Shown here: one piece after another, positions 7,511 through 15,646 of the stretch
How the letters are laid out: every line of letters begins with the position of its first letter
Position numbering within the stretch: the first letter of the stretch is position 1
Origin: an uncultured Gammaproteobacteria bacterium
Lineage (GTDB): Bacteria > Pseudomonadota > Gammaproteobacteria > Xanthomonadales > Xanthomonadaceae
Reading direction: 5' to 3'
DNA length: 15,646 nt
Assembly (NCBI GenBank): GCA_946885735.1
Contig: CAMPGW010000070.1
Location: 1-15,646 of the forward strand
The notes under the pieces: model-generated
Seen by the model: only the letters and a program-made list of their open reading frames with translations
What the model was told of the DNA's origin: nothing
Database searches by the model: none
Program-made: the position numbers and the translations under genes

Positions 7511-7900
7511 ATGGAACAAAACAATCTCAGCGGCCTACGGGTCATGGTCATCGACGATTCGAAGACCATCCGGCGGACCGCGGAAACGCTCCTGAAGAAG
7601 GAAGGCTGCGAGGTGGTCACCGCCACCGACGGCTTCGAGGCGCTGGCGAAGATCGCCGACCACCAGCCGCAGATCATCTTCGTGGACATCATGATGCCGC
7701 GCCTGGACGGCTACCAGACCTGCGCGCTGATCAAGAACAACCAGATGTTCAAGGGCACGCCGGTCATCATGCTGTCCTCCAAGGACGGCCTGTTCGACAA
7801 GGCCCGCGGGCGCATCGTCGGCTCCGACCAGTACCTGACCAAGCCCTTCACCCGCGACGAGCTGCTCGCCGCGATCCGCAACTTCGTCGCCTTCGCCTGA
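7511..7900 (+). CDS. pilG: PilG, CheY-like response regulator of twitching motility
   Basis: Single-domain receiver of 129 residues that is phosphorylated by the ChpA kinase and, in Pseudomonas, promotes pilus extension and acts upstream of cAMP signalling. It contains the acidic pocket IDDSK (Asp15, Asp16), phospho-acceptor Asp59 in IIFVDIMMPRLDGYQTCAL, the switch serine in VIMLSSKDG and the conserved Lys111 of YLTKPF. The sequence is very close to P. aeruginosa PilG, including TIRRTAETLLKKEGCEV and RIVGSDQYLTKPF. The ATG at 7511 is preferred over an in-frame GTG at 7484 because GGGGA lies 5 nt before it and MEQ matches the family start. It is the first gene of the operon, and pilI follows 5 nt after its stop. 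No pilH gene follows, unlike in Pseudomonas. Confidence 0.96.
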   Translation: MEQNNLSGLRVMVIDDSKTIRRTAETLLKKEGCEVVTATDGFEALAKIADHQPQIIFVDIMMPRLDGYQTCALIKNNQMFKGTPVIMLSSKDGLFDKARGRIVGSDQYLTKPFTRDELLAAIRNFVAFA

Positions 7901-7905
7901 CCGCC

Positions 7906-8451
7906 ATGGCCAAGACGCACGCCGCCTCCGCTTTCGACACCCTGCTCGACTACGAAGCCCGCTCGCTGGCGCACGTGCCCGGGCGCCCGGAGTCGGTGGA
8001 GGCCGCCGGCCACTGGCGCGGCGTCGGCTTCCGGCTCGGCCAGCGCCGCCTGGTCTCGTCCTTCGACGAGGTGATGGAAATCCTGCCGATGCCTGCCGTC
8101 ACCCCGGTGCCGGGCGCGCAGCCGTGGATGCTCGGCGTGGCCAACGTGCGCGGCACCCTGTTGCCCGTGGTGGACCTCAAGCAGTTCCTGGAGGGCGAAC
8201 GCACCGTCGTGCACGACGGCCAGCGCATGCTGGTCGTGCGCCAGGCCGGCGGCAACGTCGCCGTGCTGATCGACGAGCTGTACGGGCAGCGCACTTTCAA
8301 CGATACGCATCGCGCCGAGATGGGCGGTGAGGACGACGGCCGCTACGGCCACTTCGTCAGCCAGGTCTACCGCCTGGCCGACACCAACTGGGCGGTGTTC
8401 AGCATGCAGACGCTGACACGCACGCCTGAATTCCGGCAGGCCACCGTTTAG
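7906..8451 (+). CDS. pilI: PilI, CheW-like adaptor
   Basis: CheW-domain coupling protein of 181 residues, expected to link the receptor PilJ to the kinase ChpA in the cytoplasmic chemosensory array. The domain spans about residues 37-170. It shows WRGVGFRLGQRRLVSSFDEV, the hallmark WMLGVANVRGTLLPVVDL (74-91), MLVVRQAGGNVAVLIDELYG and a closing WAVFSMQTL. The start at 7906 lies 5 nt after the pilG stop and has no evident Shine-Dalgarno of its own, so it probably depends on translational coupling with pilG. Thirty-six nt separate its stop from the pilJ ATG; this gap contains a short TTTTT run but no convincing terminator stem. Confidence 0.93.
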   Translation: MAKTHAASAFDTLLDYEARSLAHVPGRPESVEAAGHWRGVGFRLGQRRLVSSFDEVMEILPMPAVTPVPGAQPWMLGVANVRGTLLPVVDLKQFLEGERTVVHDGQRMLVVRQAGGNVAVLIDELYGQRTFNDTHRAEMGGEDDGRYGHFVSQVYRLADTNWAVFSMQTLTRTPEFRQATV

Positions 8452-8487
8452 GCCGTTTTTGGATCACTTTCGAGGGTGGGTGCAGTC

Positions 8488-10530
8488 ATGAGCGTGAATG
8501 CCAGTTCGTTGCAGGGCCGGTTGTCCAACTTCGGCTTCAAGTTTTGGGGCGCGGTGCTGGCCCTGGCACTGGTCGTCCTCGGCGCGAACACGTTCTACGC
8601 CGCCTACCTGGGCAACCAGGAAAACAAGGCCCGAGCGCTGACCGCGGAACTGCAGGTGCTCTCGCAGCAGCTTGCGAAGTACTCCCGCGAGGCGGTCGAA
8701 GGCGGTAACTCCGAGTCCTTCGACGAGTTCAAGGCCACCAAGGACCGCAGCGCCGCCATCGTCACCGCCCTGCGCAAGGGTGGCGAGGGCGTCCCCGGCT
8801 ACGAAGGCAGCGTCAACCAGAAGGGCGTGGACGTCGCGCTGCGCAAGGTCACCACCGTCTGGACCAAGATGGCGGCCGACGCCAACCGCATCAGCCAGTC
8901 GCAGGACCGCATCGTCAACCTCAGCGACACCGCGGCCGCCTTCAACGCCCGCATCCCGCAGATCTCCGCCCGACTCGACGAAGTGGTGCGCGCGATGTCC
9001 GACGCCGGTGCGCCGGCCTCGCAGATCAACCTGGCCAATCGCCAGATCGTGCTGGCCGACCGCATGTCGCGCCGCGTGACGGAAATCCTCGCCGGTGGCG
9101 ACCGCGCCGTGACCGCCGCCGACGCGCTCTCGCGCGACTCCGCGGTGTTCGGCCAGGTGCTGGCCGGCCTGAAGAGCGGCAACGCCGAAATGGGCGTCGC
9201 CCGGGTCACCAGCTCCGCCGCGCTCGGCGCGGTGGACGCGGTCGACAAGCTGTACGCCGACTCGCTCAAGGAGATGGACTCGATCCTGCAGGCGTCCACC
9301 GACCTGTTCGAGGTGCAGCAGGCTTCGCAGGCGATCTCCGAGGACTCCAACGTCCTGCTCGAGGACAGCCAGGCGCTGTTCGAGACCTTCGGTTCCAGCC
9401 TGGCCCGCGCCTTCCCGAACAACGTCTGGGCGATCGGCTCCGGTGTCGCCGCCTTGCTGGCCCTGGTCGGCCTCTACGTCGTCCAGCGCCGCCGCGACTT
9501 CGAGACGCTCAACAGCACCAAGGAACTCAACCAGCGCAACCAGGAAGCCATTCTGCGGCTGCTCGACGAAATGGGCAGCCTCGCCGAGGGCGACCTGACG
9601 GTGAAGGCGACGGTGACCGAGGAGATCACCGGCGCGATCGCGGACTCGATCAACTTCGCCATCGAGGCGCTGCGATCCCTCGTATCCACGATCAACGAAA
9701 CCGCCGTGCAGGTGGCCGCCGCCGCCCAGGAAACCCAGGCGACCGCGATGCACCTGGCCGAAGCCGCGGAACACCAGGCGCAGCAGATCACCTCCGCCTC
9801 CGCGCAAATCCAGGACGTGGCATCGAGCATCGACCAGGTCTCGCGCAACTCCGCCGAATCGGCCGACGTGGCGCAGCGCTCCGTGCAGATCGCCGCGAAA
9901 GGCGCCGAAGTGGTGCGCCAGACGATCCAGGGCATGGACAACATCCGCGACCAGATCCAGGAGACCTCGAAGCGAATCAAGCGCCTCGGTGAAAGCTCGC
10001 AGGAAATCGGCTCGATCGTCGAACTGATCAACGACATCGCCGAGCAGACCAACATCCTCGCGCTCAACGCCGCCATCCAGGCGGCCTCCGCCGGTGAAGC
10101 GGGCCGAGGCTTCGCGGTGGTGGCCGACGAAGTGCAGCGACTCGCGGAACGCGCCTCGAACGCCACCAAGCGAATCGAGACCCTGGTCCAGACCATTCAG
10201 AGCGATACCAACGAGGCGGTGTCCTCGATGGAGCAGACGACCGCGGAAGTGGTCGCCGGTGCGCGACTGGCCGAGGACGCGGGCCTGGCCCTGGGCGAGA
10301 TCGAGAAGGTGTCGAACGACCTCGCGAGCCTCATCCAGAACATCTCCATGGCGGCCCGGCAGCAGTCGGTGGCGGCGACCAACATCACCGCGACCATGTC
10401 GGTCATCCAGGAGATCACCACGCAGACCTCGCAGGGCGCCAACCAGACCGCCGAGAGCATCGGCAACCTGGCCCAGCTCGCCGCGGACCTGCGGCGCTCG
10501 GTGGCCGACTTCAAGCTGCCGGCGATCTGA
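8488..10530 (+). CDS. pilJ: PilJ, methyl-accepting chemoreceptor of the Pil-Chp system
   Basis: Inner-membrane chemoreceptor of 680 residues that senses pilus or surface signals and controls the ChpA kinase. TM1 is at about residues 17-40 and TM2 at about 312-335 ([21 protein letters not shown]), bounding a periplasmic helical region of about 270 residues as in PilJ-type sensors. A HAMP-like segment ([20 protein letters not shown]) and a long cytoplasmic MCP coiled coil follow. The hairpin tip around residues 512-550 reads [20 protein letters not shown] then [20 protein letters not shown], the contact site for CheW and kinase. It has IQAASAGE where most MCPs have IEAARAGE, which I recall as a PilJ trait. 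ATG 8488 is chosen over in-frame GTG 8476 because GGTGGG lies 7 nt upstream. No methyltransferase gene (pilK) follows directly. Confidence 0.96.
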
Positions 10531-10580
10531 TCGGCGACAACCCCACACACCCGTAATGGCTGGGCACGGTCCCCCGATCC

Positions 10581-10597
10581 GTCGCTTGCGCAACGAC
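10581..10597 (+). other. Small hairpin just upstream of chpA
   Basis: GTCG-C-TTGCGCAA-CGAC can fold with GTCG/CGAC and TT/AA pairs around a GCGC loop and one bulged C. It occupies the 78-nt gap between pilJ and chpA and ends 11 nt before the chpA ATG, beside the likely ribosome site (CAGG, 10597-10600). It could influence chpA translation or mRNA processing. It has no T-run, so it is not a terminator. Nothing else notable is seen in the gap. Confidence 0.3.
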
Positions 10598-10608
10598 AGG
10601 CTTTCGGA

Positions 10609-13600
10609 ATGACGCTGCAAGACAACAGTATCGACTTCACGACGCTCACCTGGGTCAAGCCGGAGCTCGACGAGACGCTCAAGCAGGCGCGCAACGCCTT
10701 GCAGAGCTACGTCGAGGAAGGCGAGAACCCGGCCGAGCTGCGCACCTGCGCGGACCTGCTGCACCAGGTCCAGGGCACGCTGCGGATGGTCGAGCTGTAC
10801 GGCGCGGCGATGGTGGCCGAGGAGATGGAACAGCTCGGCCGCGCGCTGATGGACAAGCGCGTCGGCGACCGCGACGCCGCCTACTCGGTGCTGATGCAGG
10901 GCATCGTCCAGTTGCCCGACTACCTCGAGCGCCTGCAGGGCGGGCATCGCGACATCCCGATCGTGCTGTTGCCGCTGCTGAACCAGCTGCGCGCCTCGCG
11001 TGGCGAGAAGGGCCTGAGCGAGAGCGTGCTGTTCTCCCCCGATCTTTCGCGTCCCCTGCCGCCCGCGGCGCAGGGACCGGTGGCGCCGCTGCCGCACCTG
11101 GAGCTGACCCGCCGCGCCGAAGCCCTGCGCGGCCTGTTCCAGGGCGCGTTGCTGCGCTGGCTCAAGGACGACAACAGCGCGGCCACCATCCGCGACCTCA
11201 CCGACGTGTGCGAGCAGTTGGTGCCGATCACCAGCGCCGAGCCCGCGCGTCGCCTGTTCTGGGTCGCCGCCGGCACGCTCGACGCGCTCGCCCGCAATGC
11301 CTTCCCGATCAGCACGCCGCTCAAGCAGGCCCTGGCCAAGGTCGAGCGCGAGATCAAGCGCCTCGCCGACGGCGGCGACGTCGCCTTCCGCATCGACCCG
11401 CCGATCGAGCTGACCAAGCAACTGCTGTATTTCGTCGCCCACGAGGGCAGCGACCACGGCCGCATCGGCGAGATCCGCCAGGTGTTCGGGCTCAGCGGCT
11501 CGGAGCCGAGCGAGGCCGAGCTCGCGCACGCGCGGGGCAGCCTGTCCGGCAACAACCGCGCCCTGCTCGAGACCGTCGCGGTCGCGATCAAGGATGACCT
11601 GCTGCGGGTCAAGGACGCGCTCGACCTGCACCTGCGTACGCCCGGCGCCACGCCGGCCGCGCTGAGTGCGCAGGTGGACGCGCTCGACCGTGTCGCCGAC
11701 ACCCTCGGCATGCTCGGCCTGGCCGTGCCGCGTCGGGTGGTGCAGGACCAGCGCACCGCCGTGAACGACGTCGTGTCGGGCGTTCGCCGCGACGACGAGG
11801 CGACCCTGCTCGACATCGCCGGCGCGCTGCTTTACGTGGAAGCCGCACTCGACGACCAGGTCGAGCGCCTCGGCAAGGAGGGCGGCGAGGCTGCCGATCC
11901 CGCCGGCGGCAACGACTCCCGGCGCCTGCTCGAGGCGCTGGTCAAGGAAGCGATCGTCAATTTCTCGCAGGCCCGGCAGAGCTTCGTCGGTTTCGTCGAG
12001 ACCCATTGGGACCACCGCCAGCTGGCGGACGTGCCGCGCCTGCTCAACGAGGTTGCCGGCGCCCTGCGCATCCTCGACGTGCCGCTGCCGGCCGACTACC
12101 TGGTCGGCGTTCGCCAGTTCACCGAGAACGAGTTGCTGCAGCGCAAGCAGGTGCCCAACGGGCAGCAGATGGATCGCCTGGCCGATGCGCTGGCGAGCCT
12201 GGAATATTTCCTCGAGGCCCTGCGCGACCGCCGCCCGAATCGCGAGCAGATCCTCGAAGTGGCGCGGCAAAGCCTGACCGCGCTCGGCTATTGGCCGTTG
12301 TCGGCCGCGATGCGTGCGGCGCCGGTGCGCGTGGAAGCACCGGCCCCCGTCGTCGCCGCCCCGGCCGCATCCGTTGCTGCGTCGAGCGTGTCGAGCGCGT
12401 CGAGTGCGCCGGCCGAGCCGGTCGCGCCCGTGGCCGCCGAGCCAGCCGCAGGCGCGCCTGCCGAAGCCATTGCCACCGCTTCGCAGGCCGAGGCGCCGAG
12501 CGCGGCGCCCGCCCAGCCAGTGCCGTCGGAGGTTGCCTTGCTGTCGTCCGCGGGCGAGGTCGGCGAGCCGGTGTCCGGCTTCGACGCCACCAGCAGCGAG
12601 GAGATCGACGACGAGATCCGCGAAGTCTTCCTCGAGGAATTCGAGGAAGAGATCGAGAACCTCCAGCAGTTGTTGCCGCCGTGGCGCGACGACCCGGGCA
12701 ACGCGGAACTGCTGCGCCCGATCCGCCGCGTGTTCCACACCCTCAAGGGCAGTGGCCGCCTGGTGGGGGCGCGCGCGCTGGGCGAGTTCAGCTGGAAGAT
12801 CGAGAGCATGCTCAACCGCGTGCTCGACGGCAGCCGTCCCGCCAGCGCCGAAGTCATGGCGATGGTCCAGCTCGCGTTGCAGCACCTGCCCTTGCTGCGC
12901 TCGGCCTTGCAGGGCCAGCAGGTGCACGCGGACCTGGTCGGCATCCAGGACGTCGCCGACCGGCTTGCCGCTGGCGAGGAAGCGACCTACCGCTCGCCGC
13001 TGTTGGCCGCCGAAGCACCCGTGGCCGTCGAAGAGGACTTCGACGACGAGGAAATCTTCGAAGCCCAGGAGGCCGAGCTTGCTGTCGAGCCGGCCGGCGA
13101 GGAGCCCCTCGCCGCCGACGCCGAGACCGACGACGCGCCGGTGTTCTCCATCGACCCGGTGTTGCTGGAGATCCTCAAGCCCGAGGTCGCCGGACACCTG
13201 GAGACGGTCGACGCCTGGCTGGCGGCCTGCGCGGCCCGCGGTCCGCAGCCGGTGACCGATCCGCTGCTGCGTTCGATCCACACGATGAACGGCGCGTTCG
13301 CGATGACCGAGGTGATGTCCATCACCGAGGTGACGGCGCCGCTGGAAGGTTTCGTCAAGCGTTCGCTCGCCCACGACCTCGTGCCGGGCGAGGCTGGCAT
13401 CGCCCTGGTCGCCGATGCCGCCCGCGCCATCCGCGCGACCGTGCAGGCGATCGAGAAGCCGCGCCCCGTGTTGCCGCATTTCAGCGAGCTGGCTGCGCGT
13501 GCGGTTTCGCTGCGCGACACCTTGCCCGACTCGGCGCTGCCCAGCGTGCCCCTGCACGTGGACGACGAGCAGATGCCGCAAGTGGTGGTGATGGAAGCCG

Positions 13601-15646: not shown

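What the first reader, a model, noticed from the sequence alone, without database searches (positions are those of the whole stretch)
13561..15646. ChpA carries at least 695 residues of acidic linker with no Lys, Asn or Cys
Between HPt module B and the still-missing C-terminal kinase part, the protein has an uninterrupted polyanionic region longer than most whole kinases. The absence of Lys, Asn and Cys over this length is not a simple GC-content effect, since AAG, AAC and TGC are all used freely in the first half of the same gene. This suggests selection for a flexible, highly charged spacer between the phosphotransfer modules and the kinase core. Proposed roles (inference): entropic spacer that lets distant HPt modules reach the kinase core, crowding exclusion, or a docking surface for basic partners at the cell pole.
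Basis: partly seen in the sequence, partly recalled or inferred. Interest (0 to 1): 0.72.

Follow-up and report, generated by a model that had tools for sequence, protein, structure and literature searches.

The report
Stretchable acidic tether in pilus kinase
A kinase thought to steer bacterial twitching has its two halves joined by a probably floppy, acidic strap whose length drifts by gaining and losing short repeats, while a few tiny peptide motifs inside it change little and may be docking sites.

Summary
In detail: ChpA residues 985-1679 lack Lys, Asn and Cys and carry net charge -194; the free run is really 951-1679. Acidity is a family trait: 159 of 159 clean orthologous linkers are net negative and 32 of 159 also have no K, N or C. 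Length varies (132-925 aa, median 337); the window is at the long end. In orthologues a third HPt comes before the kinase. AlphaFold shows isolated helices but no folded domain in the linker.

Two features were missed. First, the linker is repeat-rich: near-identical ChpAs differ by whole repeats (one pair by 70 aa), contigs often end there, and the window itself ends in a 15-bp array. Second, short islands are conserved. M4, YGMSLAELEALTAP (1540-1553), is matched at 0.76-0.81 in its clade against a median of 0.05 per site. M4 resembles FliM's CheY-binding peptide LSQxEIDALL, and P. aeruginosa ChpA lacks the CheY-docking P2 domain, so response-regulator docking is testable but unproven: one folded kinase segment matched FliM slightly better.

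The parts
10609..15645 (+). chpA, N-terminal 1679 codons; no stop before the window end
   Evidence: Pfam Hpt 3 stretches
12598..12924 (+). HPt-A (aa 664-772), with H in FHTLKGS
   Evidence: Pfam; own HMM iE 7.8e-58; AF2 helices, block pLDDT 88-98
13144..13467 (+). HPt-B (aa 846-953), with H in IHTMNG
   Evidence: own HMM iE 2e-51; AF2
13561..15645 (+). acidic disordered linker (aa 985-1679), truncated by the window end
   Evidence: composition; mostly low pLDDT; no HPt hit
13576..13626 (+). island M1 PQVVVMEAADTSAIPDF (aa 990-1006)
   Evidence: regex in 17 of 71 linkers, 0 in shuffles; identity 0.51-0.56
14479..14502 (+). island M2 LFSVAEFL (aa 1291-1298)
   Evidence: M2 regex in 23 of 71 linkers v 0.94 in shuffles; the window's own copy does not fit that regex and was assigned by eye and does not stand out in the alignment; AF2 helix aa 1294-1301
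14890..14922 (+). island M3 DDALAGMIAAF (aa 1428-1438)
   Evidence: 4 of 71 linkers; core LAxMIAA in 20 rows; identity 0.59; AF2 helix aa 1428-1443
15226..15267 (+). island M4 YGMSLAELEALTAP (aa 1540-1553), FliM-like core
   Evidence: AF2 helix aa 1544-1551, block pLDDT 78
15444..15646 (+). 15-bp tandem array, 13.5 copies, coding VAEE(P/T/I), runs off the window
7511..7900 (+). pilG-type response regulator (name from recall and locus context)
   Evidence: ORF; receiver-domain hits in PDB
8476..10530 (+). pilJ chemoreceptor
   Evidence: Pfam MCPsignal and PilJ

Best explanation
The region is an intrinsically disordered, polyanionic tether that joins the N-terminal half of ChpA (with HPt-A and HPt-B) to HPt-C, the kinase core and the receiver domain. 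Its length is set and reset by in-frame gain and loss of short tandem repeats, so its charge and disorder are kept while its length drifts quickly. Embedded in the drifting sequence are a few short linear motifs that are conserved as peptides (M1-M4 in the Arenimonas lineage); M3 and M4 are predicted to be short helices that probably fold on a partner. Most likely the tether lets distant HPt domains reach the kinase core, and the motifs hold partners near it. Shown here by computation: disorder prediction, composition, repeat-driven length variation, conserved motifs. Inferred: reach, flexibility in the cell, and binding of a partner.
For: Net negative charge in 159 of 159 clean linkers, lengths 132-925 aa. 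AF2 of window aa 640-1679 and of L013 aa 1036-2235: linker mostly under pLDDT 50; in L013 its only two helices fall on M3 and M4. Repeats: tandem-repeat cover median 34% in 49 linkers v 1.5% and 0% in the flanking parts; the best array has a period that is a multiple of 3 in 45 of the 45 linkers with an array (older boundaries). Length change: 23 of 24 protein pairs with at least 97% identity over the folded parts differ in linker length, in 11 of 11 groups; P0022 and P0029 are 100% identical over the best aligned stretch of their folded parts, and their linkers match at 350 of 351 aligned residues with one 70-aa block of AAAAE-type repeats present in one only. Contig ends: 19 of 76 loci end 3-4 kb after the chpA start, against 0-3 in any other kb downstream; upstream, 22 loci end, at most 6 in one kb. 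Motifs: in 40 clade linkers window residues are matched at 0.76-0.81 in M4, 0.59 in M3, 0.51-0.56 in M1 and 0.05 at the median site; invariant M4 residues use varied synonymous codons in 13 copies.
Against: No binding or biophysical data. Copy-number differences between assemblies may partly be assembly collapse. A tether that drifts freely in length may not be selected for reach at all. The 40 clade linkers were chosen because they match an M4 pattern, which inflates the M4 score (M1 and M3 were not chosen so). M4 is confined to one lineage: 124 of 164 linkers lack it, so it cannot be essential to ChpA in general. In the window model 8 linker helices of 4 or more residues are predicted and only 3 lie on islands (M2, M3, M4); the most confident, aa 1204-1237, does not. 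AF2 gave no confident docking of M4 on the in-cis receiver domain (M4 block pLDDT 57 with the receiver present in L013, 78 without it in the window).
Confidence: 0.7

Rival explanations
1. M4 (and perhaps other islands) is a response-regulator docking motif: a FliM-like helix that binds PilG, PilH or the ChpA receiver domain on the alpha4-beta5-alpha5 face and does the job of the P2 domain that ChpA-type kinases lack.
For: M4 core [LM]SxxEL(E/D)AL matches FliM LSQxEIDALL in register (consensus from a passage of PMC6700473; 31 FliM N-termini, picked by likeness to that consensus). hhalign score 15.8; 0 of 150 column-permuted controls reach it. Linkers matching the narrow M4 pattern: 21 of 34 have a FliM-like 10-mer at shuffle P<0.05; the others 6 of 139, of which 5 are looser M4 variants. 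P. aeruginosa ChpA lacks P2, as do most CheAs with a CheY-like domain (PMC10782961 passages). ChpA recruits PilH to the pole independently of phosphorylation and direct contact is undemonstrated (PMC10519157 passages). FliM is absent from 10 of 10 Arenimonas-lineage genomes, 9 of which have M4 or its L010 variant, and present in 3 of 3 outgroup genomes tested, whose loci lack M4.
Against: hhalign probability only 22-23%. 6 of 254 control windows from folded parts of ChpA score higher, all overlapping one kinase segment, so a capped amphipathic helix is enough. FliM's last Leu of DALL is Thr in 13 of 13 M4 copies and the Leu before it is Ala in 4 of 13. L053 lacks both M4 and FliM, and the M4/FliM split is confounded by phylogeny. 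No docking in AF2.
Confidence: 0.25
2. The linker is only a neutral or weakly selected entropic spacer: GC-rich repeats expand because disorder and acidity tolerate them; motifs are remnants or helix caps without a partner.
For: Fast length turnover, different repeat units in different lineages (AAAAE, LEAER, VAEET, DLEE), acidic composition throughout. Most helices in the window model do not lie on islands (5 of 8).
Against: Islands conserved far above background with synonymous codon change; in L013 the only two predicted helices are islands.
Confidence: 0.25
3. The linker replaces lost HPt domains: some other gammaproteobacterial ChpAs carry extra HPts in this interval.
For: 4 of 168 full proteins examined have extra HPts there (P0038, P0040, P0089, P0098), among them those named Hahella (P0040) and Marinobacter (P0098).
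Against: No HPt remnant is detectable in the window linker; direction of change was not tested on a tree.
Confidence: 0.15
4. Sequencing or assembly artefact at the contig end.
For: The window ends inside a tandem array, and 19 of 76 loci end in the same kilobase. The reading frame is lost in the array region in two assemblies (L001, L018).
Against: Composition and motifs recur in independent genomes; the frame is open through all 1679 codons.
Confidence: 0.03

Closest known systems
ChpA / PilL, Tfp-class CheA of the Pil-Chp system (Pseudomonas aeruginosa ChpA)
   Same: Gene cluster with pilG-type regulator, CheW-domain gene and pilJ; several HPts, no P2 hit; kinase, CheW and C-terminal receiver in the 4 full orthologues scanned
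   Different: One very long acidic disordered tether between HPt-B and HPt-C, where 4 of 168 proteins examined have further HPts instead
CheA P1-P2-P3 linkers of flagellar CheA
   Same: Long linkers between phosphotransfer and other domains (PMC10782961 passage)
   Different: Far longer (length of CheA linkers recalled), acidic, repeat-rich, and without a P2 domain
FliM N-terminal CheY-binding peptide LSQxEIDALL
   Same: Short motif in a disordered stretch; core residues in register
   Different: M4 has conserved flanks YG and TxP, lacks the last Leu, sits in a kinase; binding untested
In-frame coding minisatellites (VNTR) that change protein length (kind recalled)
   Same: Units of 15 bp and other multiples of 3, copy-number change between near-identical proteins
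   Different: Found in a chemosensory kinase linker

Membership tests
ChpA / Tfp-class CheA | Multiple HPt domains at the N-terminal side | tested here: met
   Pfam Hpt 3 stretches
ChpA / Tfp-class CheA | Pil-Chp gene neighbourhood | tested here: met
   pilG-type regulator, CheW-domain gene, pilJ directly upstream
[quoted passage not shown]
   Missing from the window; present in 4 of 4 full orthologues scanned
ChpA / Tfp-class CheA | No P2/CheY-binding domain | tested here: met
   No P2 hit in the window (E up to 1) or in 4 full orthologues (E up to 0.01)
Intrinsically disordered linker | No confident fold, low pLDDT | tested here: met
   no HPt hit; prediction only
VNTR / coding minisatellite | Tandem array with in-frame unit | tested here: met
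   15 bp x 13.5
VNTR / coding minisatellite | Copy number varies between close relatives | tested here: inconclusive
   Met in relatives; no sister strain of the window was found
FliM-type CheY-binding motif | Sequence consensus LSQxEIDALL | tested here: inconclusive
   In register and above permuted controls, but last Leu is Thr and one folded segment scores higher
FliM-type CheY-binding motif | Binds a phosphorylated CheY-like protein | not testable with these tools
   Needs a binding assay

The most novel reading that the evidence does not exclude
ChpA of the Arenimonas lineage has evolved a substitute for the CheA P2 domain: a FliM-like response-regulator docking helix (M4) carried on a length-variable acidic tether, so that repeat copy number sets the distance and local concentration of PilG/PilH around the kinase.
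Probability: 0.2. Interest if true: 0.75.

Novelty: new variant of a known kind. Interest (0 to 1): 0.5.

Why it matters
How PilG and PilH are held by ChpA, which lacks P2 in P. aeruginosa, is open (PMC10519157 and PMC10782961, passages read). A short conserved peptide in an otherwise poorly conserved tether gives a specific place to test. The repeat-driven length variation also makes ChpA a natural series for asking how tether length affects phosphotransfer and polarity, and it is the likely reason why so many contigs end inside chpA (inference).

Tried and rejected
Hidden HPt domains in the linker: rejected for the window (own HMMs with filters off; AF2). The Foldseek search of the window model (50 of 349 matches shown) is topped by helical repeat proteins, designed bundles and CheA P1/HPt domains; rows with E above about 0.05 are a mixed lot; the table does not say which part of the model matched.

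First linker boundaries were wrong for about a dozen proteins, where HPt-C or HPt-B was included; found and replaced by HMM-based ones. Length and composition counts in the report use unless said otherwise. The repeat cover, the per-locus table, the core identities and the motif scans (islands) and 67 used the older boundaries; one search used the new ones.

Intramolecular docking of M4 on the receiver domain: no support. Searching the protein database with a linker piece alone found only its own protein and one relative. M1, M2 and M3 as FliM-like: rejected (scores 6.4, 7.4 and 8.0).

Statistical caution: comparing the linker with the first 984 residues of the same protein (P about 1e-13) overstates the surprise. 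In one search the group called 'without M4' still holds looser M4 variants, and the 34 with M4 include duplicate proteins.

Rows dropped: 5 duplicate proteins (P0002, P0017, P0039, P0058, P0060) before the counts, and 3 (P0002, P0017, P0020) before the alignment; 4 proteins with extra HPts left out of the 159. In one search two loci (L075, L077) without an N-terminal ORF were left out of the 76. One search listed 120 of 1589 matches; only those were used. One search kept the best 80 of 81 matches. One search gave loci for 30 matches; that made 32 FliM loci, of which 31 gave an N-terminus under my pattern (L108 did not).

Papers: PMC12632253, PMC9126983, PMC6700473, PMC10782961 and PMC10519157 were seen as found passages only; all others as search listings. 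Searches for this linker or motif in print; no paper on it seen in those listings (PMC papers under CC0, CC BY and CC BY-SA only; listings capped at 8-20 rows).

Full report
What was claimed and checked. The window's last gene is an open frame of 1679 codons, 10609-15645. Residues 985-1679 contain no Lys, Asn or Cys; the run without them starts already at 951. Net charge is -194, with 6 Arg and 4 His. The upstream genes are a pilG-type response regulator, a CheW-domain protein (pilI) and pilJ, so the gene is chpA. Gene names are from recall plus Pfam.

Is it unusual? I compared it with orthologues found in a genome scan (78 loci) and in a protein search (120 listed of 1589). Of 168 full proteins examined, 5 are duplicates and 4 have extra HPts in the interval; the other 159 have a clean linker between HPt-B and HPt-C, with boundaries set by HPt profiles. 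All 159 are net negative (-20 to -206), length is 132-925 aa with median 337, and 32 of 159 have no K, N or C. Only three are 695 aa or longer (L006 861, P0004 925, P0005 752). L006 is a close relative of the window (76% in its best segment) and P0004 is 84% identical to L006 in the searched region. So the composition is ordinary for this family, while long linkers cluster among the window's relatives. K+N is depleted in the linker compared with the rest of the same protein (0.33% v 3.2% median, 48 loci) and falls with GC (Spearman -0.40). Four loci at 33-56% GC still show depletion but not absence.

What follows the linker. In the 4 full orthologues scanned with Pfam, HPt, dimerisation, ATPase, CheW and receiver domains are present, and the HPt-C profile marks the end of the linker. 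In the 4 proteins with extra HPts (P0038, P0040, P0089, P0098), HPts take the place of the tether.

Disorder. AlphaFold of window aa 640-1679 with 36 sequences gives two confident HPts and then low confidence, broken by isolated helices. Of 8 linker helices of 4 or more residues, 3 lie on M2, M3 and M4; the other 5 do not, including the most confident one, 34 residues at aa 1204-1237 (block pLDDT 67-92), which may be a lone helix and was not followed up. AlphaFold of L013 aa 1036-2235 with 43 sequences gives a linker near pLDDT 35 with only two helices, model residues 188-202 and 300-307; these are M3 and M4.

Repeats. The window's linker ends in 13.5 copies of a 15-bp unit. Among 49 linkers, tandem repeats cover a median 34% (18% in the window), against 1.5% and 0% of the flanking parts; 4 of 49 have no array, and in the other 45 the best array has a period divisible by 3 (older boundaries). 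Near-identical proteins differ by repeat number: 23 of 24 pairs with at least 97% identity over the folded parts, 11 of 11 groups; the linkers of P0022 and P0029 match at 350 of 351 aligned residues, with one block of 70 residues of AAAAE type present in one only. Contigs end here: 19 of 76 loci end in the single kilobase 3-4 kb after the gene start, 0-3 in any other kilobase downstream; upstream, 22 loci end, at most 6 in one kilobase. The window may end for the same reason, but its own genome is not held. Caveat: short-read assemblies can mis-count repeats, so copy numbers need long reads.

Conserved islands. M1 (990-1006), M2 (1291-1298), M3 (1428-1438) and M4 (1540-1553) occur in the same order in L006, L013, L030 and the window, although the window's M2 is a poor match assigned by eye. 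In an alignment of 40 clade linkers the window's residues are matched at 0.76-0.81 in M4, 0.59 in M3, 0.51-0.56 in M1, and 0.05 at the median site; M2 does not stand out. Those 40 were picked by an M4 pattern, so the M4 value is biased upward. Codons of invariant M4 residues vary synonymously in 13 copies, which points to selection on the peptide. In 2.09 million six-frame residues of the loci held, a FliM-like M4 core is found 17 times, 12 of them in ChpA linkers; these 12 are homologous, not independent. Linkers outside the M4 clade, Stenotrophomonas and Luteimonas among them, share another island, DLS(A/R)(Y/F)(G/F), in 33 of 164 linkers, none in the M4 clade.

What M4 may do. Its core matches the CheY-binding peptide of FliM, LSQxEIDALL, in a segment reported as disordered until CheY-P binds (passage of PMC6700473), and 31 FliM N-termini I fetched, chosen by likeness to that consensus. 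The match is in register and beats 150 of 150 column-permuted controls. Against it: hhalign probability is 22-23%; 6 of 254 windows of folded ChpA score higher, all in one kinase segment; and M4 has features FliM lacks (YG before, TxP after, Thr for the last Leu in 13 of 13). FliM is absent from 10 of 10 Arenimonas-lineage genomes and present in the 3 outgroup genomes tested; 9 of the 10 have M4 or the L010 variant, L053 has neither, and phylogeny alone could explain the pattern. P. aeruginosa ChpA lacks P2 (PMC10782961 passages), and it recruits PilH independently of phosphorylation by an undemonstrated contact (PMC10519157 passages). Response-regulator docking is therefore worth a direct test, at about one in four or five.

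Mechanism. Most likely: a charged, extended tether that keeps the N-terminal HPt array within reach of the kinase core while resisting collapse and non-specific binding (inference), with a few docking peptides (motifs shown, partners inferred). Length turnover implies that exact length is under weak selection, or is a tuning variable.

Verdict. The repeat-driven length change and the conserved, partly helical motifs are the parts worth following.

Noticed in passing
L018:9989-14198 (Arenimonas daejeonensis chromosome) and L001 near 14119: The chpA reading frame is lost in the linker in both; M4 and HPt-C continue in another frame. L001 also has a run of N there. Could be sequencing error or a real break.
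   Followed up: partly
P0004 (2704 aa, best hit): Its linker holds about five copies of a unit like ITPQEIAELEFAQ, which looks like another amplified amphipathic motif.
   Followed up: no
L055, L062, L043, L067 linkers: Some linkers (Thermomonas, Luteimonas and an unnamed MAG) are E/R/A-rich, with hardly any Pro in L055 and L062, possibly long single alpha-helices rather than flexible chains: same place, different mechanics.
   Followed up: no
Stenotrophomonas and Luteimonas loci such as L066, L068, L072: A different conserved island, (D/E)DLS(A/R)(Y/F), in 19 of 164 linkers, sometimes in two copies, all in linkers without M4.
   Followed up: partly
window 7511-8451: pilG is followed directly by pilI; no second response-regulator frame was seen between them in the ORF list.
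   Followed up: no
window 8464-15417, minus strand: A 2317-codon open frame opposite pilJ and chpA; most likely a shadow of the GC-rich codon pattern.
   Followed up: no
L025:508-4296: The chpA frame ends in a basic KPKKKRGLFGR tail instead of continuing to HPt-C and kinase; possibly a chimeric low-coverage MAG contig.
   Followed up: no
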